Positions 345 to 10,280 of a stretch of 10,280 nucleotides of DNA are shown piece after piece. The DNA comes from Oscillospiraceae bacterium. Its GTDB lineage: Bacteria; Bacillota; Clostridia; Oscillospirales; Oscillospiraceae. The stretch covers positions 1 through 10,280 of the forward strand of contig JAFZQQ010000039.1 of the NCBI GenBank assembly GCA_017620315.1. The letters run 5' to 3'. The notes under the pieces are model-generated. The model saw only the letters and a program-made list of their open reading frames with translations. It was not told the DNA's origin and searched no databases. The translations under genes and the position numbers were made by a program. The number at the start of each line of letters is the position of its first letter. Within the stretch, counting starts at the first letter, position 1.

Positions 345-1052
345 ATGGACAAGGTTCGAGAGAAGATCAAAAAGCTCCTCGCGCTCGGCGAAAGCCCAAA
401 CGAGAACGAGGCGAGGGAAGCCTTGCTCAGAGCCCGCGCACTCATGGCGCAGCACAAGCTGTGTGCCGAGGACGTTGAGGACGAGCCTCTCGTCATATCC
501 GAAACGGTGGAAGTCTTCTGCTCGCCGGAAAAGGACGCATGGGCCGTGGAGCTGAGCGCGATCATCGCGGAGCATTACTGCTGCGGCTCGTTCCGACGCC
601 GCAGGCAGGGCGACGAGGTCGAGATCGGCTTCATCGCATTGGACTGTGACTTCGACCTCTGCCGCGATATCTTCCGCTATGCCTATGATTGCGTGAAAAG
701 CAGCTGCGAGTCGCTTTCCTATCAGGAGCGCAAGAAGGGCAGGAGCGAGCAGATCATCAAAAGAGACTGCAATTCCTACGCGATGGGCTTTTGCTATGGC
801 CTGCAAACCGCGTATGAGCGGCAGGACAAGGAGCATCGGGACTGGGCGCTCGTACTGTCGACGCCCAAGCCGGTCAGCGACGTCATGAACGACATGAAGC
901 AAGCCAAAGAGCCGTTTCTCAAGCAGGAGCCGAAAGCAAAGGATCTGCAATTCCTGAGCAAAGGCTTTTTGGACGGGCTGCGCTTCGATCCGGGCAGACG
1001 GTTACCCGAGGGAGCTGTGCTTGCGGCTATCCCGGGCTTCCATGAGGCGTGA
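345..1052 (+). CDS. DUF2786 domain protein (with DUF7168-like C-terminal part)
   Basis: This gene encodes a 235-residue protein. Residues 3-40 match the DUF2786 pattern: a basic helix with KIKKLLALGES, then NENEAREALLRARALM and HKL. The rest, with a central stretch around SAIIAEHYCCGSF, a following VEIGFIALDCDFDLCRDIF and a late SYAMGFCYGLQ, fits the DUF7168-type region that usually follows DUF2786. The family is common on phages, plasmids and integrative elements, and its biochemical role is unknown; a nucleic-acid-related role is only suspected. ATG at 345 is one base after the preceding stop, so translation is probably coupled. The stop TGA at 1050-1052 overlaps a GTG at 1049 that could start the next frame. 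Domain assignment is by pattern recall, not a profile search. Confidence 0.85.
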   Translation: MDKVREKIKKLLALGESPNENEAREALLRARALMAQHKLCAEDVEDEPLVISETVEVFCSPEKDAWAVELSAIIAEHYCCGSFRRRRQGDEVEIGFIALDCDFDLCRDIFRYAYDCVKSSCESLSYQERKKGRSEQIIKRDCNSYAMGFCYGLQTAYERQDKEHRDWALVLSTPKPVSDVMNDMKQAKEPFLKQEPKAKDLQFLSKGFLDGLRFDPGRRLPEGAVLAAIPGFHEA

Positions 1053-1698: not shown

Positions 1699-3078
1699 AT
1701 GAAGGAAATCGAACTGCAATACTGCGAAAGAAACGGCTCAGAGCTTGTGGTCAGGCAAAGGACTGGTTTTGAGGTTTTCGCGGAGCTGAAGCAGCGTCTT
1801 GAGAGCATCGGCTACCTGCCGGACGAGTATTTTCTGCTCGACAGGGAATGGGAGGACGGCAGGCTGATCCCGCTTGACGCGGACATCGACTGCTCGACCG
1901 ATTACGGCGGCAGCGAAGGCGTCTACATCGACGTGTTCCTGTATTGGAACGAAGAGGGGAACGGGGTCAAAAGGTCGCACTTCATCACGGGCAAGACGCT
2001 GGGAGAGTCCGGCACGGACCTTGACAGGATGTTCCTCGTCGCGTCAGCTATCACCAAGGCGTTTCACGGCGACAGCGCGCAGCACGAGCGATATGTCCTC
2101 GTCGGCGGGGAACCCCGGCGCGGCAGCCTGATCGTCGGCTTGACGCAGGAGGAGCGGCGTATCTTCATTGAGTCGCTCATTGAGCGCCGAGAGCGCATGG
2201 GCGCGGAACTGCACGAGATCGAGGGCTTGCTCCGCCGCCTGACGGGCAGCATCACGGACTATATCAACACGGTCGGGCATCGACCGCTTGATCTGGATGA
2301 CCATGACCGGGCCATCCTTGCCATTCGTGACGGCGAATGGGACGCCTTTACCTCGGCGTTTCCAAAGCTGACTGAAAGGCGGGAGGAACTGCTCATAGAG
2401 GCGGCGGGGCGCGCGGGTCGCATCGGCCGGCGTATGATGGCATACATTCTTGCCGCGCTCGACGGCGTTTCGGCGGAGAGCTATGTGGAGGCAAGCTGCC
2501 GCGCGGCGGAGACCCGCGATACCAAGCGCGTCCATCTCCTGATGGAGCAGGCGGCGAGCCATGTGAGCGGGCTTGACCCAGCTTACTATGGGAAGCTCCT
2601 ACTCCATGTGATCTCCGAGCAAAAGGGAATGACGTTCCCACTTGTCGAGCAATGCCGCGACGAGTGGATCAAGAACGCGCCGCCCAGGCTGTTGTTCAGA
2701 GCCGTGATGCTGAATCAGCCGCATCTTGCGAGCCTCTTGGTCAAAAAGGGCATATCGGCTGGCAATACGCTGCCCGACATCACGCACTGCATGATTTCGG
2801 GAAGACGTGAATGGGAGCTGTGCGGCCTTTTGGACGCAGGCTTGCAAGTGGGGCGCGACGATTACCGCGCGCTTGACGATTGCGTCTCCAACCGAGCCTT
2901 CGACGCCGCAAAGAAACTCGTGGAGCGCGGCGTCGATTTCGACGGCTACTGCGCGTGGGTGCGCCTGCAGCGCCACAACGGCGAGCGGAAGGAGATACCC
3001 GACGAGCTTACGAAGTACGCCGCGGAACTGAACGAGCGGAGAATGCGAGAGGAGGCGGCGCATGAGCAGGCAGGATAA
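1699..3078 (+). CDS. Hypothetical protein with ankyrin-like C-terminal half
   Basis: This gene encodes a 459-residue protein, taken from ATG 1699 with GGAG at 1687-1690; a GTG at 1681 would add six residues but has no clear ribosome binding site. Residues 1-135 form an acidic N-terminal domain (YLPDEYFLLDREW, CSTDYGGSEGVYIDV, FITGKTLGESG, SAITKAFHG) of a type I associate with unknown proteins of Clostridial elements. Residues about 147-180 are a charged helical stretch. From about residue 330 to 420 there are paired helices with ankyrin-like repeats (HLASLLVKKGISAG, WELCGLLDAGLQVG, DAAKKLVERGVDFDG). Such repeats usually bind proteins. No catalytic motif is seen. The last 17 bases overlap the next gene. 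Function is unknown; a protein-binding role is inferred from the repeats only. Confidence 0.75.
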   Translation: MKEIELQYCERNGSELVVRQRTGFEVFAELKQRLESIGYLPDEYFLLDREWEDGRLIPLDADIDCSTDYGGSEGVYIDVFLYWNEEGNGVKRSHFITGKTLGESGTDLDRMFLVASAITKAFHGDSAQHERYVLVGGEPRRGSLIVGLTQEERRIFIESLIERRERMGAELHEIEGLLRRLTGSITDYINTVGHRPLDLDDHDRAILAIRDGEWDAFTSAFPKLTERREELLIEAAGRAGRIGRRMMAYILAALDGVSAESYVEASCRAAETRDTKRVHLLMEQAASHVSGLDPAYYGKLLLHVISEQKGMTFPLVEQCRDEWIKNAPPRLLFRAVMLNQPHLASLLVKKGISAGNTLPDITHCMISGRREWELCGLLDAGLQVGRDDYRALDDCVSNRAFDAAKKLVERGVDFDGYCAWVRLQRHNGERKEIPDELTKYAAELNERRMREEAAHEQAG

Positions 3079-3616
3079 CAAGCTGAGCTACCCGACCTGT
3101 GTGGGCTGCCACGGGGATTATCGGCATACCAAGGCCGCAACCATGCACCAGTACGGCGCGACCATGCACTTGGGAGACCATTTTTGCATCGAGGGGAAAC
3201 GGGCACGGAAATTCCACCGTTCGGATCCCAAAAGTAGGTGTCCCGAATGGTGTCCGAGACGAAAGGACCCCTGTGAGCTGCGCGTGTACGGTTTCATCAA
3301 CGAAGACGAACGCGCCATGCATTCGTTCTACTGCGATCATTTCAGCGACGCGCCGGAATCGAGGCGCTACGGCGTCCGCTATGAAGGTACGACGCCGCTG
3401 ACGCCGCAAGAGTTTTGGGAACAGTATTCCTCCGGCGTCGATGTGGCGCTTCCCCATGAAGTGGGGCTCTATGAGGTGCTGGAGATCGACGATGGCATCA
3501 AGCCGGTGTACTTCTATCGCTCTATGAAGGGCTTCCGCATCGAACCCTATTTCAAAGGGGAAGACGCTCGCACACGCAAAGCCATGATAATCACAAATAG
3601 GGAAGGTGAAGAATGA
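3062..3616 (+). CDS. Cysteine-rich, probable zinc-binding hypothetical protein
   Basis: This gene encodes a 184-residue protein starting at ATG 3062, which has AGGAGG at 3050-3055 inside the end of the previous gene. The N-terminal half carries cysteines at 13, 16, 42, 60, 64, 71 and 91, with the patterns CVGC, GDHFCIEGKRAR, CPEWCPRRKDPC and LRVYGF. The spacing fits a structural zinc site made from two Cys pairs plus others. The C-terminal half is rich in beta strand and aromatic residues (YEVLEIDDGIKPVYFYRSMKG). I cannot name the family; similar Cys-rich proteins sit near replication genes in Clostridial elements, from memory only. The stop is directly before the beta-clamp start, so the two are likely co-translated. 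Zinc binding is inferred from the cysteines. Confidence 0.75.
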   Translation: MSRQDNKLSYPTCVGCHGDYRHTKAATMHQYGATMHLGDHFCIEGKRARKFHRSDPKSRCPEWCPRRKDPCELRVYGFINEDERAMHSFYCDHFSDAPESRRYGVRYEGTTPLTPQEFWEQYSSGVDVALPHEVGLYEVLEIDDGIKPVYFYRSMKGFRIEPYFKGEDARTRKAMIITNREGEE

Positions 3617-3617
3617 C

Positions 3618-4697
3618 ATGAAAAGCACCATAGACGCCAAGGCGTTCGCCTCGGCGCTCAAGAAGATCAAGGGCGTACTGCGCCGCAGCACTATTCCGGA
3701 GCTGGAGCAGGTCTTCGTCGAGTTTTCGGAAAAACGCTGCCGGCTCACGGCGTCGGATCTTGAAACGTGGATGTCCGTGGAGCTTCCGGCAAAGGGCGAG
3801 GCGTTTTCGTTCGCCTTTTCGGATACCAACGCGGTCACGCGCGCGAGCGCCCATTTCAAGGGTTCGCTTACGCTCGACCTCGATGAAAAGGCGCATACGC
3901 TGCGATTGAGCTGCGGGAATAAGGGTGGAACCTTCCAGACCCTTGACGCCGCGCTCTATCCCACAAAGCCGAAGCTGGAGCCGGCGCAGCGGTATCAGAT
4001 CAAGGTCAACGACCTTTATGAGCGCGTAAAGAGCGTCAGCTACGCGGCGCTTGACAGGGAAGACCAGCCGGTTCGATCCGGCGTCCGGTTCACGGACAAG
4101 CGCGTCTGGTGCGTTGACGGCTACCGCATGGCAATCAACGAGAGCGCAGCGCTGACGGTCAAGGAGCCCTTTATCGTCCGGGCGTCGTCACTTCTGCACC
4201 TGCGCGAGTTCAACAAGTGCAAGGGCGAGCTGTCCGTTGAAGGGAAGTACATTGCTGTAAAGTCAAAAGACTTAACTCTTGTATGCACACGGCTTGAGCC
4301 GACCGACGAGCTCCAGATCGAGCACACAATGCCGAAAAGCTATGCAGAAAGCTACTCGGTGGATCGGAAGCAGTACATGGAGGCGCTTAACTACCTGCGC
4401 GACTGCTGCCGGGATCATGTGCGCGCAACTGTAGCATTTGACAACGGCGTACTTTCTCTGCGGGACAACGACGGAAACTACAGCGTCGCGGTTACGATGG
4501 AGGGGACGCACGAGATCGGCTACAACTTCCGGCTTTCCTATATGCGCGAGGCGCTCAAGCAGTTTGACGGCGAGCCGAGGGTCTGGATCAAGACCAGCTC
4601 GTCCGTTTCGCCCATAATCATCACAGCCGGCGGCGCGGATACCGCCATGGTGCTGCCGGTCAGACGCATGGAAGCCGCGGCCGCGCACGCCGCGTAA
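3618..4697 (+). CDS. dnaN: Divergent DNA polymerase III beta subunit (sliding clamp)
   Basis: This gene encodes a 359-residue protein close to the usual 366-378 residues of bacterial beta clamps. The clamp is a ring-shaped dimer that slides on DNA and tethers the replicative polymerase and repair enzymes. Family signatures seen are REDQPVRSGVRF followed by VDGYRMA (residues 166-172; usually TDGHRLA), a third-domain segment GYNFRLSYMREALKQF, and a C-terminal VLPVRR (345-350; usually MPMRL). ATG 3618 is chosen because GGAAGG-type bases lie about ten bases upstream; GTG 3606 is an in-frame alternative. The tail of alanines after residue 351 is unusual. Its place among unknown mobile-element genes suggests an element-borne copy rather than the host gene beside dnaA. 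The family call is firm; whether it works as a clamp is inferred. Confidence 0.88.
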   Translation: MKSTIDAKAFASALKKIKGVLRRSTIPELEQVFVEFSEKRCRLTASDLETWMSVELPAKGEAFSFAFSDTNAVTRASAHFKGSLTLDLDEKAHTLRLSCGNKGGTFQTLDAALYPTKPKLEPAQRYQIKVNDLYERVKSVSYAALDREDQPVRSGVRFTDKRVWCVDGYRMAINESAALTVKEPFIVRASSLLHLREFNKCKGELSVEGKYIAVKSKDLTLVCTRLEPTDELQIEHTMPKSYAESYSVDRKQYMEALNYLRDCCRDHVRATVAFDNGVLSLRDNDGNYSVAVTMEGTHEIGYNFRLSYMREALKQFDGEPRVWIKTSSSVSPIIITAGGADTAMVLPVRRMEAAAAHAA

Positions 4698-4710: not shown

Positions 4711-4962
4711 TTGGAGAATCAAAGCAAAACCTGCACGAACTGCCGGTATTCCTACTATGCGCAGGATCGTTCGCGGCACCCGACCATTGGGCTGCTGCGC
4801 CAGCACTGCAAAAGCAAGGAGTACAACTCGGCGAAGTACACGCAAAAGATGTTTGAAGAGGACCGGAAGGGCAACCATTGCCGTTTCTGGGCTCCCATCG
4901 ACGAAAATAATGATAAAGGAGAGAAAGACAATGAAGAACAATTACTCGGTCGAGGAGCGTAA
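4711..4962 (+). CDS. Small four-cysteine protein, TTG start
   Basis: This gene encodes an 83-residue protein. The start is TTG 4711, eight bases after AGGAG at 4698-4702; no in-frame ATG near the beginning is as good. Cysteines at 8, 11, 33 and 57 (CTNC, QHCKSKEY, NHCRFW) give a likely single zinc site. The remainder is polar and charged, with no membrane segment. The protein is cytoplasmic by appearance and could be a small nucleic-acid or protein adaptor, but no function can be assigned. Its last 32 bases overlap the start of the sigma-like gene, and that gene's ribosome binding site lies inside this ORF, so the two are probably coupled. The low-efficiency TTG start may hold its level below that of its neighbours. 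Confidence 0.7.
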   Translation: MENQSKTCTNCRYSYYAQDRSRHPTIGLLRQHCKSKEYNSAKYTQKMFEEDRKGNHCRFWAPIDENNDKGEKDNEEQLLGRGA

Positions 4963-5302
4963 CCGCATCGTGGAAGAGCACCTTTGGTGCGTGGATACCG
5001 TCATAAGCAGGAATAAGAGGAAGATCCGTTCGGCGCAGCTCGAATCGGACGACGTCCGCCAGGAGCTTTGCATCCGCCTTATCCGCGCCGCCGCCAAGTA
5101 CGCCAAAGCGTTCGGCGACCTCCGTGACTTCATCTTCGCGGAGCTGGAGCAGGAGATGCGCATGCAGCTTTCCAAGCAGGACACGCACGGACTCACGGGA
5201 GCCTCGGCGTTCGGCGGCGGCATCGAGGTCGTGCCTCTGTCGTATGCGCGGCGTACCGCCGCCCGCGACGAGTATGACGATATCGAAAAGCTCGCCGCGT
5301 AA
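4931..5302 (+). CDS. Sigma-70 region 2-like protein lacking region 4
   Basis: This gene encodes a 123-residue protein starting at ATG 4931 with AGGAG at 4917-4921. Residues 13-76 look like region 2 of sigma-70 family factors: a first helix with IVEEHLWCVDTVISR, then LESDDVRQELCIRLIRAAAKY, the equivalent of the region 2.1-2.2 helices that bind the RNA polymerase beta-prime coiled coil. What follows (QDTHGLTGASAFGGG to the end) is short and shows no helix-turn-helix of region 4, so a normal -35 contact is missing. It could be a minimal element-specific sigma factor, one part of a split sigma, or a small regulator that binds polymerase. Its closeness to a clamp gene recalls phage middle/late control, but this is inference. 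The sigma relation is by motif, with moderate confidence. Confidence 0.6.
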   Translation: MKNNYSVEERNRIVEEHLWCVDTVISRNKRKIRSAQLESDDVRQELCIRLIRAAAKYAKAFGDLRDFIFAELEQEMRMQLSKQDTHGLTGASAFGGGIEVVPLSYARRTAARDEYDDIEKLAA

Positions 5303-5511: not shown

Positions 5512-6396
5512 ATGGATCTTGCCGAAAAGCTGCAAAGCGTCGTGATCGAGGTTGATACCCGCATCACACAAGAAGATCGGGCGTTTTGCGAAAAGAACCA
5601 GGCAGCCTATGAGGAGGTGCTCAACAATTATATCGAGTTTCGCTTCTTCTGGGAGACAATGGAGGAGACGCAAAAAGAACTGCTGAAGGACGTCGACGCA
5701 AGGTACCGGCGCGACTATCTGCGCTCAAAAGATGGCCCACAGATCACGCTGAGCAGCATCACAAGCCGTATCAACGCTATCCACGGGGACTATATCAAGG
5801 CGATTTGCGGCTATTTCCGCAGCGAGTACAAGATCACCGTCCGCGAAAAAGAGATCGAAACCTCTTTGATCCCGGAGCAACCCGACGTCTACGGGCGGCA
5901 GGACTTTGAAAAGTGGAACGAATACTGCCGGCGGATGGAGGAATTGAGGATCAGGTATCAGGACGTGGTCGATCGGATCATGCTCCAGCTTGACGGCAGG
6001 CTGCTGAGCGAGCAGGCGTTCTTCGAGCTGCGAGAAAAGTGCAGAAACGCAGCGTATATCAATGATAAGCCGCGGTTTGAGAGGCGAAAGTCCGTCCTGC
6101 GCTTTGACAGCGGATTCTGCCATATAAGAGGCTGGCCGTTTGACGGCTGGGAGATCTACGATGGCGGCAAGGATTTGATCCGTGGTATGGCTCACTTTGA
6201 GACGGGCACGTTTACCGAGCTTCCCGCGGGCGTCGGCGAGCTGATCAGCTTCTATGAGATAGAACGCAGCGTGTTCGATTTTCCCGATTGCAACAAGCTC
6301 CAACAGATCAGGCTGTTCAAGAACGGACGCGCCGACGTGCGCTTCGCTACGGAATCGGACGCGGCGCAGTTTGTGAGTACCTATCTTGCGGCATAG
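5512..6396 (+). CDS. Tandem paralog A, DUF4942-like protein of unknown function
   Basis: This gene encodes a 294-residue protein with GGGAGGAGG just before ATG 5512, the best ribosome binding site in the window. It has the signature shared by the three paralogs: D15-x-R-I-T, then F25-C-E, Q30-A-A-Y-E; a middle helix RYQDVVDRIMLQLDGR; CRNA; a beta segment RRKSVLRFDSGFC; the segment MAHFETG; and a C-terminal FKNGRADVRFATE. The C-terminal pattern and the order of segments recall DUF4942 proteins, where a similar FKNGN motif ends the domain and which are often near or fused to DNA methyltransferases; this is recall, not a search. No catalytic site or membrane segment is seen. Hairpins flank the gene on both sides, so its expression may be separated from the other two copies. 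Confidence 0.7.
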   Translation: MDLAEKLQSVVIEVDTRITQEDRAFCEKNQAAYEEVLNNYIEFRFFWETMEETQKELLKDVDARYRRDYLRSKDGPQITLSSITSRINAIHGDYIKAICGYFRSEYKITVREKEIETSLIPEQPDVYGRQDFEKWNEYCRRMEELRIRYQDVVDRIMLQLDGRLLSEQAFFELREKCRNAAYINDKPRFERRKSVLRFDSGFCHIRGWPFDGWEIYDGGKDLIRGMAHFETGTFTELPAGVGELISFYEIERSVFDFPDCNKLQQIRLFKNGRADVRFATESDAAQFVSTYLAA

Positions 6397-6406
6397 CTCA
6401 GTATTA

Positions 6407-6422
6407 CGGCGCTGATGCGCCG
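6407..6422 (+). other. Short perfect hairpin after paralog A
   Basis: CGGCGC at 6407-6412 pairs with GCGCCG at 6417-6422 around a TGAT loop. It lies ten bases after the stop of paralog A and just before a larger terminator-like stem. Its core resembles the inner part of the hairpin upstream of the 37-residue ORF: both contain ACGGCGCT followed by ATGCGC, with one extra base here. It could be part of a composite terminator or a remnant of duplicated intergenic sequence. Confidence 0.55.
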
Positions 6423-6429
6423 CGGGGAA

Positions 6430-6473
6430 CCCGGAGAAGACCGAATGGCGGTTTTCTTCGGGCTTTCTGTTTG
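6430..6473 (+). terminator. Probable intrinsic terminator after paralog A
   Basis: Bases 6430-6443 pair with 6449-6462 to give a 14-pair stem (twelve Watson-Crick pairs plus two G-U pairs in RNA) with an AATGG loop. The downstream strand is followed by CTTTCTGTTT, a moderately T-rich tail. This fits a weak or partial rho-independent terminator in the 92-base gap between paralogs A and B. It would lower readthrough from the long upstream operon into paralogs B and C. I saw no promoter after it, so some readthrough is likely needed. Confidence 0.6.
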
Positions 6474-6488
6474 CAAAAGGGGGTATTT

Positions 6489-7385
6489 ATGGGCTTGTTG
6501 GAGAAATTCGACGCTGTAACCGTAGACGTGGACAACCGGATAACCGCTGCGGACAAGGCGTTTTGTGAGAAACATCAGGCGGCGTATGAGACGGCGCGTG
6601 CGACTTTCCACGAGTTTTCCTTTTTCTGGGCCGACATGGTCAAGGCGCAGTGTGAGCTGCTGCAGGAGGAAGACTACAAAAACGAGAAGTATCTGGATGC
6701 CAGTGGAGGCGTAAAAGTGGACGAGGACAGGATCCGCAATAATATTGAATGCCTCCACGGCAAGCTGATCGGGACGCTGGTTGCTTACTTCAATGCAACC
6801 TACAATGTCTCGGTGGACAGCTATGAGGTCGAAAAGCAGCTTGTCCCGCAAGAGCCGAGCTATTACGCGAAAGACGAGGAGAAGAACGCATACCACGAGA
6901 AGATGGACGCATTGGTGCTGAACTACCGCGACGTGGTCGACCAGATCATCTTTCGGCTCGGTGGGCGCAGCTTCTCCGAGCAGGCGGACTATGAGATCAA
7001 GGAAGCCTGTCGGAACGCGGTTTGGGATTATCACAGCAAAAATGCCAATTTCACTCTCAGAAAAAGCGTAATCAGCCTGTCAGGATATTTCTGCTCCTAC
7101 AATGAGGTATTCAACACTTGGACGCTCTCCAGCGACATGAGGAAGGTGCTGTACGCCCTTGCTCACTATGAAGCCGGAGCCGCGGGGATTTATCCGTGGG
7201 GCATCCGAAGGCTTCTTGACGAATGCCGCATGCACGTGGATACGACCGGATTGGGGGACTGTGAGAAGGTGACGAAGCTCAAAATGTACAAAAACGGACG
7301 AGTTGACATCACGTTTGCCTCGCCGGACTGCGCGAAATGCTTTGCAAAAGAGTATTTTGGTGAACAATGGGATGCCGCTGCGTAG
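6489..7385 (+). CDS. Tandem paralog B, DUF4942-like protein of unknown function
   Basis: This gene encodes a 298-residue protein starting at ATG 6489 after AAGGGGG at 6477-6483; in-frame codons before this run through the hairpins and are not expected to be translated. It repeats the architecture of paralog A: D15-x-R-I-T, FCEKHQAAYE, NYRDVVDQIIFRLGGR, CRNA, LRKSVISLSGYFC, LAHYEAG and the terminal MYKNGRVDITFAS, ending DAAA. In the first 34 residues I count 21 identities with paralog A and 24 with paralog C, so B and C look closer. Function is unknown; the relation to DUF4942 is tentative. A different gene lies between this copy and C, unlike the closer spacing of the 37-residue ORF and A. 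Confidence 0.7.
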   Translation: MGLLEKFDAVTVDVDNRITAADKAFCEKHQAAYETARATFHEFSFFWADMVKAQCELLQEEDYKNEKYLDASGGVKVDEDRIRNNIECLHGKLIGTLVAYFNATYNVSVDSYEVEKQLVPQEPSYYAKDEEKNAYHEKMDALVLNYRDVVDQIIFRLGGRSFSEQADYEIKEACRNAVWDYHSKNANFTLRKSVISLSGYFCSYNEVFNTWTLSSDMRKVLYALAHYEAGAAGIYPWGIRRLLDECRMHVDTTGLGDCEKVTKLKMYKNGRVDITFASPDCAKCFAKEYFGEQWDAAA

Positions 7386-7440
7386 GAAAAATGCAAGATT
7401 TATGCCACTGAGAGCGGCGAAATGAGAAGGAGAGATCATT

Positions 7441-7848
7441 ATGATCGAAGTAATCAATCGCAGAATTGCTGGAGATATGGTAAAGCTTTACAGCTACGAC
7501 GGCAAAATGCGCTTTCGCGTTACGGGGTCGTACTATAAAGTGCCGGCGTCCGCAGATGAGATCGCACAGGAAAAGAGAATGGCGCTCACCCACTTCGGCG
7601 ATGGCAGCGTTACGCTGGTAACGCAGCTGCTGATCGACAACGATTCAACAGAGCGTCAGATTGAGGAGCGATATGAAGAGATTCTGAACCAAATGGAGGA
7701 TGATTTGGGGATGCACGAAGGCGACTGTTCCAGCAGCAGTTGGTTCGTTGGCAGCGCTGAGGACACCTTTGACTACCTTATGACAGAGGAAGAACGCCGG
7801 ATCATTCGCTCGGCAAGCCAGGGATTGGAGAATACGGAGCATATCTGA
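7441..7848 (+). CDS. Hypothetical acidic protein between paralogs B and C
   Basis: This gene encodes a 135-residue protein starting at ATG 7441, with AAGGAG at 7427-7432. The first half is beta-rich with alternating hydrophobic residues (GDMVKLYSYDGKMRFRVTGSY, SVTLVTQLLID). The second half is a charged helix (ERQIEERYEEILNQMEDDL), a serine cluster (CSSSSW) and a final acidic/basic helix (TEEERRIIRS). I recognise no family and no catalytic motif; there is no signal peptide or membrane segment. It bears no resemblance to the flanking paralogs and sits exactly between two of them, so it may be a partner, a later insertion or a regulator. Coding is well supported by length, ribosome binding site and lack of a better frame. 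Confidence 0.65.
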   Translation: MIEVINRRIAGDMVKLYSYDGKMRFRVTGSYYKVPASADEIAQEKRMALTHFGDGSVTLVTQLLIDNDSTERQIEERYEEILNQMEDDLGMHEGDCSSSSWFVGSAEDTFDYLMTEEERRIIRSASQGLENTEHI

Positions 7849-7900
7849 CGGAGGGCGCGCAGTAGTTCCTGCGTCATAAAAAAGAGAAAGAAGTGAGAAT

Positions 7901-8797
7901 ATGGATCTTTTGGAGAAATTCAATGCCGTCGAGGTCAAAACCGACGACCGCATCACACAAAGGGACAAGGATTTTTGTGAGCGGCATCAGGCGGCGTATG
8001 AAAATGCCGTTACATCCTATACGGAGATGCTGCGACTATGGCTTACGCTTGATGAAAGGCAGAAGGAACTGCTCGGCGACGCGCAGGGTGAGCACTATGA
8101 CCGATATTTGTGCGGCAGGGAAGATGTCCGCATCAACAATTACGGCGTTAAAAGCCATGTGGACGAGCTGCACAGGCTGTTTATCCAAACGATTATTGAG
8201 CATTTTTGCGAGAGCCACGGTATTGAGTTGAACGAGTATCGCATCATGGATGCCTTGCTCAAGAATCCGGACGACCTGCTCAAGCCCCTGGAAGAAAAGT
8301 GGTCGGATATGCCAAGGCAGAGGACGCCGATCCGCTATGAGACCATCGTGGACCTTATCTATGAGCAAATGGACGGTCAGAGCTTTGACGAATTTGCCAT
8401 GAGCCAGCTGAAGGACAACTGCTATAACGCGGTCAGAGGCTTCGGACGCGACGCTGTTGAGGTGGAACGAAAGAAGGCGGTGATACGCTTGCGCGGACGA
8501 TTCTGCCATATGTACCTTAACTATGGCCGCGAGGAGTGGTCTGTTCAGGAACGGCTCAAATCCATTCTGAAGGCTGCCGCCTACTATGAAACGGGGGAGT
8601 TTGGCAACATCCCGGAGCGCCTTTGGGAGCTTATCAAAGGGGAGACGCTCCATTACGGGTATGTCATGTTTACCGACTGTCAGAAGATCAGTGAGCTGCA
8701 GATGTATAAAAACGGCAGGGTAGATCTGTCCTTTTCGTCAGAAGACAGCGCGCGTGAGTTTTTCAACGTCTTTTTGGCGCAGGATGCTGCTGCATGA
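7901..8797 (+). CDS. Tandem paralog C, DUF4942-like protein of unknown function
   Basis: This gene encodes a 298-residue protein starting at ATG 7901. The ribosome binding site is purine-rich but weak (GAGAAAGAAGTGAG), poorer than those of paralogs A and B. The shared pattern is kept: D15-x-R-I-T, FCERHQAAYE, RYETIVDLIYEQMDGQ, NCYNAV, ERKKAVIRLRGRFC, AAYYETG and MYKNGRVDLSFSSED, ending DAAA. In the first 34 residues I count 20 identities with A and 24 with B. A 17-base stretch, 7985-8001, is identical to 6573-6589 in paralog B. The stop overlaps the methyltransferase ribosome binding site (TGA 8795-8797, AAGGAG 8797-8802), so this copy and the methyltransferase are probably made together, which supports a joint role. 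Function remains unknown. Confidence 0.7.
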   Translation: MDLLEKFNAVEVKTDDRITQRDKDFCERHQAAYENAVTSYTEMLRLWLTLDERQKELLGDAQGEHYDRYLCGREDVRINNYGVKSHVDELHRLFIQTIIEHFCESHGIELNEYRIMDALLKNPDDLLKPLEEKWSDMPRQRTPIRYETIVDLIYEQMDGQSFDEFAMSQLKDNCYNAVRGFGRDAVEVERKKAVIRLRGRFCHMYLNYGREEWSVQERLKSILKAAAYYETGEFGNIPERLWELIKGETLHYGYVMFTDCQKISELQMYKNGRVDLSFSSEDSAREFFNVFLAQDAAA

Positions 8798-8808
8798 AGG
8801 AGAGTGGC

Positions 8809-10011
8809 ATGGAACACATCAAATATCAGTTTGCCCCGGCCCCGACCGATCCCGAGCAGCGCAGGGCGCTCAATCAGAAGGTCATCGACATCATCAACTG
8901 CGGCGGCGTCGAGGGCATCACAAAGGAGGACGTCTACAATGCCTACACCGGCGACGGCGGGCTGCACGGGCTGGAGCGCGAGGATTATGAGAATTATCAC
9001 GAGTACAGCGAGGCGAAAAAGCAGGTCGAAAACGGGCAGTTTTTCACGCCGCACGAGCTTTGCCGACTTGTGATCGGCGCGCTCGCTCCGTCCCCCTATG
9101 ACCTTGTTGCGGATCTCACCTGCGGCAAGGGCAGTTTTTTCAATTTCCTGCCGACTGGGTCCAACGCCTACGGCTGCGAGGTGGACACAAAAGCGTTCAA
9201 GGTTGCGCAATACCTCTATCCCGACGCGAACCTCATGCTTGGGGACATTCGCACTTATAAGCCAGACGTACGCTTTGACTATATCGTGGGCAATCCGCCG
9301 TTCAACCTGCGCTGGCAGACGGAGGACACCGAGTATCTGTCGCAGTTCTACTACTGCATCAAAGCCGCGCGACTTCTGAAACCGCTCGGCATCATGGCGC
9401 TGATCGTGCCGCAGTCATTCCTTGCAGAAGCGTTTCTTGACAAGAAAATGATCAAGGAGCTTGAAAAGTATTTCAGCTTTCTCGGTCAGGTCGGGCTCCC
9501 GGACAGCGCCTTCGCGCCGCTCGGCGTCAAGAAGTTCCAGACCAAGCTGCAGCTTTGGCAGCGGATCAGCGAGGCGCCGGGCTGGAGCGCGCGCAAGTAC
9601 ACGACAGATCTTGCCTATGCCATAGACGACCTCAGCGACATGGCAGGAGAAGTCAAGCGCCTCAGTGACAGGCTTTTGGCGCTGCCGAAGGCGGACCTTG
9701 AGAAGAACAAGTCCCATGTGCTGCTGGAGCTGGCGCGCGAGCATCATGCCAACGCGCAGTTCGCGTATGAGACGCAGAAGCTACTCTATCAGATCAAGGC
9801 GCATCCCGCGACACGGGACAGGTACATGAAGTGCTGCGAGCAGGTCCATAAGTTTTACACACAAGAAAAGCCGGACGGTATGGACTGGAAGGAGTGGGAT
9901 CGCAAGAAGCTCACCGAGAATAAGGTGCTTGCCTATCTGAAACGCGCGCTTGCGCGGCAGAGCAGAAAGCCGGAGCGCGACGAGGCAAGGCTTATCAAGC
10001 AGGAGGATTAA
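8809..10011 (+). CDS. DNA adenine N6-methyltransferase (class I SAM-dependent)
   Basis: This gene encodes a 400-residue protein that most likely moves a methyl group from S-adenosylmethionine to adenine N6 in DNA. Motif X-like GQFFTP is at residues 76-81, the SAM-binding motif I DLTCGKGSF at 102-110, the acidic CEVD at 123-126, and the catalytic motif IV NPPF at 162-165. The order X-I-IV is that of HsdM/gamma-class and type IIG enzymes. Residues about 275-400 are mainly charged helices with no visible target recognition domain, so specificity may come from a partner or from the helical part. ATG 8809 is chosen because AAGGAG lies six bases upstream; ATG 8794 is an in-frame alternative. No restriction nuclease is seen, so it may be an orphan, protective or regulatory enzyme of the element. 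Confidence 0.88.
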   Translation: MEHIKYQFAPAPTDPEQRRALNQKVIDIINCGGVEGITKEDVYNAYTGDGGLHGLEREDYENYHEYSEAKKQVENGQFFTPHELCRLVIGALAPSPYDLVADLTCGKGSFFNFLPTGSNAYGCEVDTKAFKVAQYLYPDANLMLGDIRTYKPDVRFDYIVGNPPFNLRWQTEDTEYLSQFYYCIKAARLLKPLGIMALIVPQSFLAEAFLDKKMIKELEKYFSFLGQVGLPDSAFAPLGVKKFQTKLQLWQRISEAPGWSARKYTTDLAYAIDDLSDMAGEVKRLSDRLLALPKADLEKNKSHVLLELAREHHANAQFAYETQKLLYQIKAHPATRDRYMKCCEQVHKFYTQEKPDGMDWKEWDRKKLTENKVLAYLKRALARQSRKPERDEARLIKQED

Positions 10012-10012
10012 C

Positions 10013-10280
10013 TTGTATATAAGGCGTACAGCAACAAGGCAAAGTCGCTGATCCCGGACAGCCTGCGGACGCCGACGCTCATCTACCGCGCCGTGCTCGA
10101 CGATGAGCCGGAGCGTTTTCCCGGCTTTGAGCGGTTCCTGCGCAGAAAGCGGAGCGAGTACGACCGGCAGAGCCGCCAGTTCTCGGAAATGGCCGAGAAC
10201 GCGGAGATTGCCGCTTGGCTCAAGAGCTTCACAATCTGGGACGAGGAGAACGAGGAGAACATCCAGCTCAACGAAAGCAG
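10013..10280 (+). CDS. Partial hypothetical gene, apparent frameshift at its start
   Basis: From 10012 to the window end one frame is open and reads as real protein: KAYSNKAKSLIPDSLRTP, then FPGFERFL, and a later AAWLKSFTIWDEENEEN. The frame has no ATG, GTG or TTG until GTG 10093, which lacks a ribosome binding site. A TTG at 10013 sits six bases after AGGAGG (10001-10006), exactly where a start is expected, but it is in another frame that stops after twelve codons. Removing two bases from the TATATA at 10016-10021 would join the TTG to the long frame and give a start MYKAYSNKA. The gene runs off the window. I do not recognise the family; it follows the methyltransferase closely and is likely part of the same unit. 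Confidence 0.55.

What the first reader, a model, noticed from the sequence alone, without database searches (positions are those of the whole stretch)
5512..8797. Three tandem paralogs next to a DNA methyltransferase
Three proteins of 294, 298 and 298 residues share an N-terminal signature (D-x-R-I-T, FCE, QAAYE), a middle (VVD/IVD) helix, a C-(R/Y)-N-A motif and a C-terminal KNGR motif, yet have diverged clearly (20-24 identities in the first 34 residues by hand count). Triplication kept as full-length frames suggests distinct specificities or subunits of a hetero-oligomer. Tight coupling of the third copy to an adenine methyltransferase lacking an obvious recognition domain suggests they could be its partners. 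DUF4942 kinship and that role are inference.
Basis: partly seen in the sequence, partly recalled or inferred. Interest (0 to 1): 0.75.

Follow-up and report, generated by a model that had tools for sequence, protein, structure and literature searches.

The report
Triple partner array of methylase-helicase
Three old, diverged copies of a protein with no assigned function sit just upstream of a DNA-methylating enzyme, and since relatives of this protein are almost always encoded near a methylase-helicase of that kind, they likely act as interchangeable parts that would tell the enzyme which DNA to mark.

Summary
In detail: X1 (5512-6396), X2 (6489-7385) and X3 (7901-8797) are full-length paralogs, 33-36% identical. 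They are not a recent triplication: X3 is no closer to X1 and X2 than to X of other genera. The "methyltransferase" (8794-10011) is the front of a ~1010-residue LPD36-MTase-SNF2-helicase, M, the DarB-like "methylase-helicase dyad"; here its frame is cut by an in-frame TAA. X is M's neighbour: M lies downstream on the same strand in 22 of 22 virus loci and 55 of 57 genome loci found with X; 44 of 51 virus loci found with M carry X. X was more conserved than M's MTase half in only 4 of 1128 pairs, and in one otherwise about 94%-identical pair X alone fell to 68%, with M's spacer partly following. Other elements carry two X genes; three were seen only here. X is outside Pfam DUF4942, but its C-terminal domain matches DUF4942 above decoys in profile-profile comparison, and DUF4942 is fused to related methyltransferases in phages. 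Best reading (inferred): X is a swappable targeting subunit of a DarB-like antirestriction methylase, and the array would widen its target range. No binding or methylation was tested.

The parts
5512..6396 (+). X1, 294 aa, first copy of the X family (phrog_27491, no assigned function)
   Evidence: (E 8.7e-19)
6430..6462 (+). terminator-like hairpin between X1 and X2 (14 pairs, then CTTTCTGTTT); X1 may be transcribed apart from X2-X3-M
   Evidence: 7 such sites in the region against 5.0 in shuffles, so the scan alone is weak; MFE -41.8 for 6397-6490, z -4.56, 0 of 200 shuffles as low
6489..7385 (+). X2, 298 aa, second copy
   Evidence: (E 2.7e-20)
7441..7848 (+). 135-aa frame of unknown function between X2 and X3; no relative at E 1e-5 in the fetched loci searched
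7901..8797 (+). X3, 298 aa, third copy, overlaps the first possible start of M
   Evidence: (E 2.4e-21); model pLDDT 87.3
8794..10011 (+). M, front part: LPD36-like N-terminus (TGDGG), adenine MTase (FFTP, NPPF) and spacer; frame ends at an in-frame TAA. Likely true start 8809
   Evidence: N6_Mtase E 4.5e-11; phrog_24008 E 1.9e-130
10012..10280 (+). same frame beyond the TAA, aligned to the start of the helicase half of relatives; cut by the contig end
   Evidence: one TAA inside the match

Best explanation
X1, X2 and X3 are members of a protein family encoded near a DarB-like LPD36-methyltransferase-SNF2-helicase (M) in nearly every locus found, and they likely serve as exchangeable targeting (specificity-type) subunits of M, so that the array would let one methylating motor of what is likely a mobile element mark several DNA sequences. 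Shown here: the family, its linkage to M on the same strand, its faster divergence than M, one allele replacement confined to X (of three parts of M compared, only the spacer, residues 231-430, also drops), tandem pairs in other elements, and a C-terminal domain related to DUF4942, a domain fused to methyltransferases in phages. Inferred: that X binds M (perhaps through the spacer), that X reads DNA, that M methylates adenine of the element's own DNA against host restriction as proposed for DarB, and that the three copies differ in target. In this contig M's frame is interrupted by a TAA, so whether this copy still works is open.
For: Linkage: M found downstream of X on the same strand in 22 of 22 IMG/VR loci and in 55 of 57 genome loci (one of the 55 holds only a fragment of X); of 51 virus loci found with M, 44 hold X (9 further rows of the 60 matched only the MTase weakly and are left out; loci not dereplicated). 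48 dereplicated loci (M under 90% identical) with both full length: same strand 48 of 48, X upstream in 47 (downstream in Tenacibaculum phage pT24), within 100 bp in 28. Same 300 family genomes: X in 4, M in 6, all 4 X genomes have M. Variation: X more identical than the MTase half in 4 of 1128 pairs; L057 against L038: upstream kb 93.5%, X 68.0%, MTase 96.7%, spacer 85.0%, helicase 95.7% DNA identity; over 91 pairs of 14 loci X correlates with spacer at 0.74, with MTase 0.48 and helicase 0.50, pairs not independent. Copies: two X genes in L034, in L115/L135/L136/L143 and, as one gene plus a C-terminal fragment, in L134. Kinship: hhalign X against a 16-row DUF4942 profile P 8.2e-5, probability 61; repeated score 41.0 against 200 column shuffles of mean 13.1, sd 2.25, maximum 23.0, and reversed profiles 11.8 and 13.0. 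Three of three DUF4942 fusion proteins scanned match PHROG DNA methyltransferases behind DUF4942, among them families that also match window M, with an NPPF/Y motif. X also ends long frames, one with LPD29 and LPD25. M motifs.
Confidence: 0.5

Rival explanations
1. X is a loading or delivery factor: it brings M to the incoming DNA or into the transfer or packaging machinery (as Dar accessory proteins do for DarB in P1, recalled), and varies because the delivery machinery or host counter-measures vary.
For: X stands behind the large polyvalent-protein domains LPD29 and LPD25 in one frame and at the end of 642-775-residue stop-to-stop frames in others; polyvalent proteins are proposed to be delivered with the DNA (PMC5512222, passages and section 14 seen).
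Against: X-M occurs in jumbo phages and in an element with conjugation-type genes, which presumably share no delivery machinery (inference); the replaced allele is accompanied by change in M's spacer only.
Confidence: 0.22
2. X is a regulator or inhibitor of M (keeps it silent until transfer), and copies are paralogous regulators.
For: Overlap of X3 and M and the usual order X then M; a terminator-like hairpin behind X1 allows separate expression.
Against: A fast-diverging, tandem-duplicated part is not what one expects of a regulator (general expectation); no known regulator fold was recognised.
Confidence: 0.12
3. The module is a defence system (BREX-, MADS- or restriction-like) that the element carries against other DNA.
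For: PADLOC's best match to the window MTase is MAD2 (E 7.3e-19), and DrmD and BrxH models match the helicase part of relatives.
Against: The match to NCBIfam MADS2 is 33.6 bits against a cut-off of 720; M's best PHROG matches are phage proteins. Whether a nuclease gene is linked was not tested.
Confidence: 0.1
4. The array is a relic: X copies gathered in a decaying element whose M is already broken, without present function.
For: In-frame TAA and a contig end in M; the other M piece in the genome, C438, is not the exact continuation (3 substitutions and 1 length difference in about 44 end bases, read); M is also in pieces in L004, L055, L059, L062 and L081 and L138.
Against: All three X frames are intact and keep nearly all conserved residues, and two-copy arrays stand beside an uninterrupted M in L034 and L115.
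Confidence: 0.2

Closest known systems
DarB of phage P1 and the LPD36-MTase-SWI2/SNF2 'DNA methylase-helicase dyad' (PMC5512222, section 14 read, passages elsewhere)
   Same: N-terminal GXGU motif, TP and NPPF MTase motifs, SNF2-type helicase in one polypeptide in relatives; window M matches P1 DarB at 25.5% over 54% of its length
   Different: About 1010 residues in relatives instead of a giant protein; a dedicated partner X beside it, which the section read does not mention; window copy interrupted
DUF4942 (PF13708)
   Same: C-terminal domain with the F-K-N/K-G hairpin; DUF4942 is fused to DNA methyltransferases in two phages and a plasmid scanned
   Different: X is not matched by the Pfam model and is a separate gene beside the MTase; the N-terminal parts were not aligned by hhalign
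phrog_27491
   Same: X1-X3 match its residues 443-717 over their whole length
   Different: The PHROG model has 442 further N-terminal residues, as in the long frames
Type I restriction-modification HsdM-HsdS
   Same: A conserved adenine MTase with a quickly diverging, sometimes multi-copy small partner (HsdS side recalled)
   Different: No Methylase_S match; SNF2-type motor fused to the MTase

Membership tests
LPD36-MTase-SWI2/SNF2 dyad (DarB-like) | GXGU motif in an N-terminal helical domain before the MTase | tested here: met
   TGDGG in window M, TGIGG in L005, G44 and G46 invariant in the 9-row alignment; the helical fold was not modelled
LPD36-MTase-SWI2/SNF2 dyad (DarB-like) | Adenine MTase with TP and NPP(Y/F) motifs | tested here: met
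   FFTP and NPPF; N6_Mtase E 4.5e-11
LPD36-MTase-SWI2/SNF2 dyad (DarB-like) | SNF2-type helicase C-terminal in the same polypeptide | tested here: inconclusive
   Helicase domains in the same frame in L005 and L006 and on C438 (SNF2 E 1.4e-9); in the window the frame is cut by TAA and by the contig end
LPD36-MTase-SWI2/SNF2 dyad (DarB-like) | Protects incoming DNA against restriction | not testable with these tools
   needs experiment
DUF4942 (PF13708) | Score above the Pfam gathering cut-off | tested here: not met
   no match for X1-X3, for 20 family members or in the own genome; the E. coli control rings
DUF4942 (PF13708) | Homologous C-terminal domain by profile-profile comparison | tested here: met
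   P 8.2e-5; score 41 against decoy maximum 23; probability only 61-72, and 3.4 against a single sequence
phrog_27491 | Full-length match of X to its C-terminal region | tested here: met
   E 8.7e-19 to 2.4e-21
HsdS (type I specificity subunit) | Methylase_S target recognition domains | tested here: not met
   no Pfam match up to E 10 for X1-X3; not among the families matched by 20 members up to E 1
HsdS (type I specificity subunit) | Structural match of X to HsdS | tested here: inconclusive
   not listed among the rows shown; absence from the list shows nothing
MADS (MAD2 methyltransferase) | Score above the NCBIfam cut-off | tested here: not met
   33.6 bits against 720

The most novel reading that the evidence does not exclude
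X is a new class of swappable specificity subunit, remotely related to DUF4942 and unlike HsdS, that programmes DarB-like methylase-translocases; elements stack one, two or three X genes so that a single motor writes several protective methylation motifs on entering DNA.
Probability: 0.35. Interest if true: 0.82.

Novelty: new variant of a known kind. Interest (0 to 1): 0.58.

Why it matters
The methylase-helicase module is among the most prevalent parts of polyvalent proteins of phages and conjugative elements (PMC5512222), and I found no account of how it chooses DNA. A linked, fast-changing and sometimes tandem-duplicated partner makes that question directly testable: do X alleles set the methylated motif? 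It would also give a functional lead for DUF4942, which matched 4963 of 72,556 plasmid records, mostly enterobacterial, and could explain how elements adapt to hosts with different restriction systems.
Full report
WHAT IS THERE. The window is a whole 10,280-base contig (C129) of an incomplete genome (68.6% complete). Three frames of one family, here called X, stand at 5512-6396, 6489-7385 and 7901-8797, followed by a methyltransferase frame at 8794-10011. The three proteins are 33-36% identical over their length. All three match phrog_27491 over their whole length; none has a Pfam or NCBIfam match of note, and the one PADLOC match (X2, E 5e-4 over 51 residues) looks like chance. None of the 120 best of 396 X relatives in the protein database carries a precomputed Pfam domain. 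A terminator-like hairpin lies between X1 and X2, and a 135-residue frame without relatives in the loci searched between X2 and X3.

THE METHYLTRANSFERASE IS PART OF A LARGER PROTEIN. The frame matches the first 390 of 1006 positions of phrog_24008, a methylase-helicase. The same frame continues after an in-frame TAA (10009-10011) and aligns to relatives up to the contig end. Relatives (L005, L007 and most others) have one open frame of about 1000 residues; L005 and L006 were scanned and have N6-methyltransferase and SNF2/DEAD helicase domains. A helicase half lies on contig C438 of the same genome, starting at profile position 472, but its end is not identical to the end of C129, so it is a close relative or second copy. 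I call the full protein M. It has the GXGU, TP and NPPF motifs that mark the LPD36-MTase-SWI2/SNF2 dyad, archetype DarB of phage P1 (PMC5512222, section 14 read).

X AND M TRAVEL TOGETHER. A search of virus contigs with an X alignment gave 22 loci, all with M. A search of one genome per species gave 57 loci: 55 have M downstream on the same strand (in L059 and L086 only parts of M; L088 holds M and only a fragment of X); the two exceptions (L078, L089) carry short divergent X-like genes in Bacillota next to an ATPase that looks MoxR-like by eye. The reverse search with M gave 60 virus loci; 9 match only the MTase weakly and were dropped; of the remaining 51, 44 hold X (upstream, or downstream in the two Tenacibaculum phages), two (L111, L118) are cut by the contig start, one (L125) lacks the MTase half, and four (L124, L127, L128, L142) have complete M and no X. 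These loci were not dereplicated. In 300 genomes of the same family X occurs in 4 (E 1e-3) and M in 6 (E 1e-40); all four X genomes have M adjacent, one full M (G291) and one remnant (G154) have no X. In 391 genomes drawn from the class, M (E 1e-60) was found only in the own genome and X there plus two weak partial matches. Of 105 loci with both at full length 48 remain after dereplication: same strand in 48, X upstream in 47, within 100 bp in 28, 100-1000 bp in 12, farther in 8 including pT24, where X lies downstream.

THE ARRAY. Tandem pairs of X occur in L034 (the same contig as G275 C19), in L115, L135, L136 and L143 (same coordinates, probably one virus), and in L134 as a gene plus a C-terminal fragment; a second weak match in Tenacibaculum phage PTm1 was not seen. 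Three copies were seen only in the window. In the tree (51 rows) X3 sits with P0004, P0005 and five further proteins at 100/100, L034's two copies fall in different clades, and X1 and X2 branch elsewhere with modest support. The array is therefore made of old lineages, not of a recent triplication.

X IS THE VARIABLE PARTNER. Over 1128 pairs of the 48 loci X is more conserved than M's MTase half in 4; for example at 50-60% MTase identity X averages 34.8%. In L057 against L038 DNA is 93-99% identical upstream of X in ten of thirteen 150-base windows and 84-86% in three, falls to 57-70% within X with both ends of the gene conserved, and returns to 83-99% in M. Of three parts of M compared, the spacer (residues 231-430) drops most (85.0% against 96.7 and 95.7%). 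Among 14 related loci X identity follows the spacer (r 0.74) more than MTase (0.48) or helicase (0.50); the pairs are not independent and all six strongly discordant pairs involve L057, so this is one event.

STRUCTURE AND KINSHIP. AlphaFold2 on a 60-row alignment gives a confident model of X3 (pLDDT 87.3): long N-terminal helices and a C-terminal alpha/beta domain with the KNGR hairpin; the C-terminal domain alone reaches 92.7. No solved structure stands out. Pfam does not place X in DUF4942. A DUF4942 profile of 16 sequences compared with X aligns 93-98 columns of the C-terminal domain including F-K-N-G, P 8.2e-5 and 3.4e-5, probability 61 and 72, score 41 in the repeat against a decoy mean of 13.1 and maximum of 23 in 200 column shuffles and 11.8 and 13.0 for reversed profiles; one DUF4942 sequence alone gave probability 3.4. 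Of three DUF4942 proteins scanned whole (two phages, one plasmid), Pfam saw the MTase weakly in one, but all three match PHROG DNA methyltransferases behind DUF4942, including phrog_6263, phrog_799 and phrog_9133, which also match window M, and have an NPPF or NPPY motif. X is also found at the end of 642-775-residue stop-to-stop frames and, in Chengkuizengella marina, behind LPD29 and LPD25, domains of large polyvalent proteins.

SETTING. The two-copy element G275 C19 carries PcfJ, a YodL/primase-like protein, RecD2, an NAD-dependent ligase, a group II intron reverse transcriptase and an IS110 transposase (7 of its larger frames scanned), pointing to a conjugative or integrative element; other members are Tenacibaculum phages. 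The sporadic distribution fits a mobile element. The window itself shows no transfer or virion gene in the scans made.

MECHANISM. Most likely, and inferred: M is a motor-methylase that marks the element's DNA on entry, and X docks on M, perhaps at the spacer, and selects where it acts; several X genes would give several target sets, as multiple hsdS genes do in type I systems (recalled). This explains linkage, order, fast divergence, allele replacement with conserved gene ends, tandem copies and kinship to a methyltransferase-fused domain. It does not explain M genes without X, which might carry other partners. The delivery-factor reading explains the polyvalent fusions as well and is the main rival.

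LIMITS. Everything is from sequence and models; no binding, methylation or restriction data exist. The window's own M is interrupted, so the array here may be idle. Counts of loci are not independent beyond the stated dereplication.

Noticed in passing
window 3606-4694: A DnaN-like sliding clamp (PHROG 947 E 2.7e-38; below the NCBIfam dnaN cut-off) in what looks like a mobile element.
   Followed up: no
window 345-1049: DUF2786 plus DUF7168 gene; relatives lie in stretches with M and no X (G291, G154) and with X and M (L058/L069, L115/L136).
   Followed up: partly
window 4928-5299: Sigma-70 region 2-like protein (below the Pfam cut-off) with a relative (42% identity over 88 residues) on the two-copy element G275 C19.
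   Followed up: no
window 3062-3613: Unknown gene whose relatives recur near X-M in L004, L165/L034 (one contig), L054, L056 and L039: a further candidate member of the module.
   Followed up: partly
L078 487-1221; L089 307-1095: Short divergent X-like genes (about 250 aa) in Bacillota without M, beside an ATPase that looks MoxR-like by eye.
   Followed up: partly
L068 8246-10819: 858-residue frame LPD29 - LPD25 - X directly before M in Chengkuizengella marina.
   Followed up: yes
L108 2612-4249: A DUF4942 protein (E 3.5e-19) in the same virus neighbourhood as X and M.
   Followed up: no
L004, L055, L059, L062, L081, L138: M is in pieces in several relatives, in L062 near the border of spacer and helicase as in the window; breakage, sequencing error or natural splitting was not decided.
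   Followed up: no
window 6551-6589 and 7963-8001: X2 and X3 share 87% DNA identity over 39 bases coding the FCE-HQAAYE motif, far above their overall similarity; possible gene conversion.
   Followed up: no
L011 (C438), about 3401-4329 of its reverse complement: Two small overlapping genes behind the helicase half that resemble a DUF3990/DUF3791 pair by eye; names recalled, not tested.
   Followed up: no
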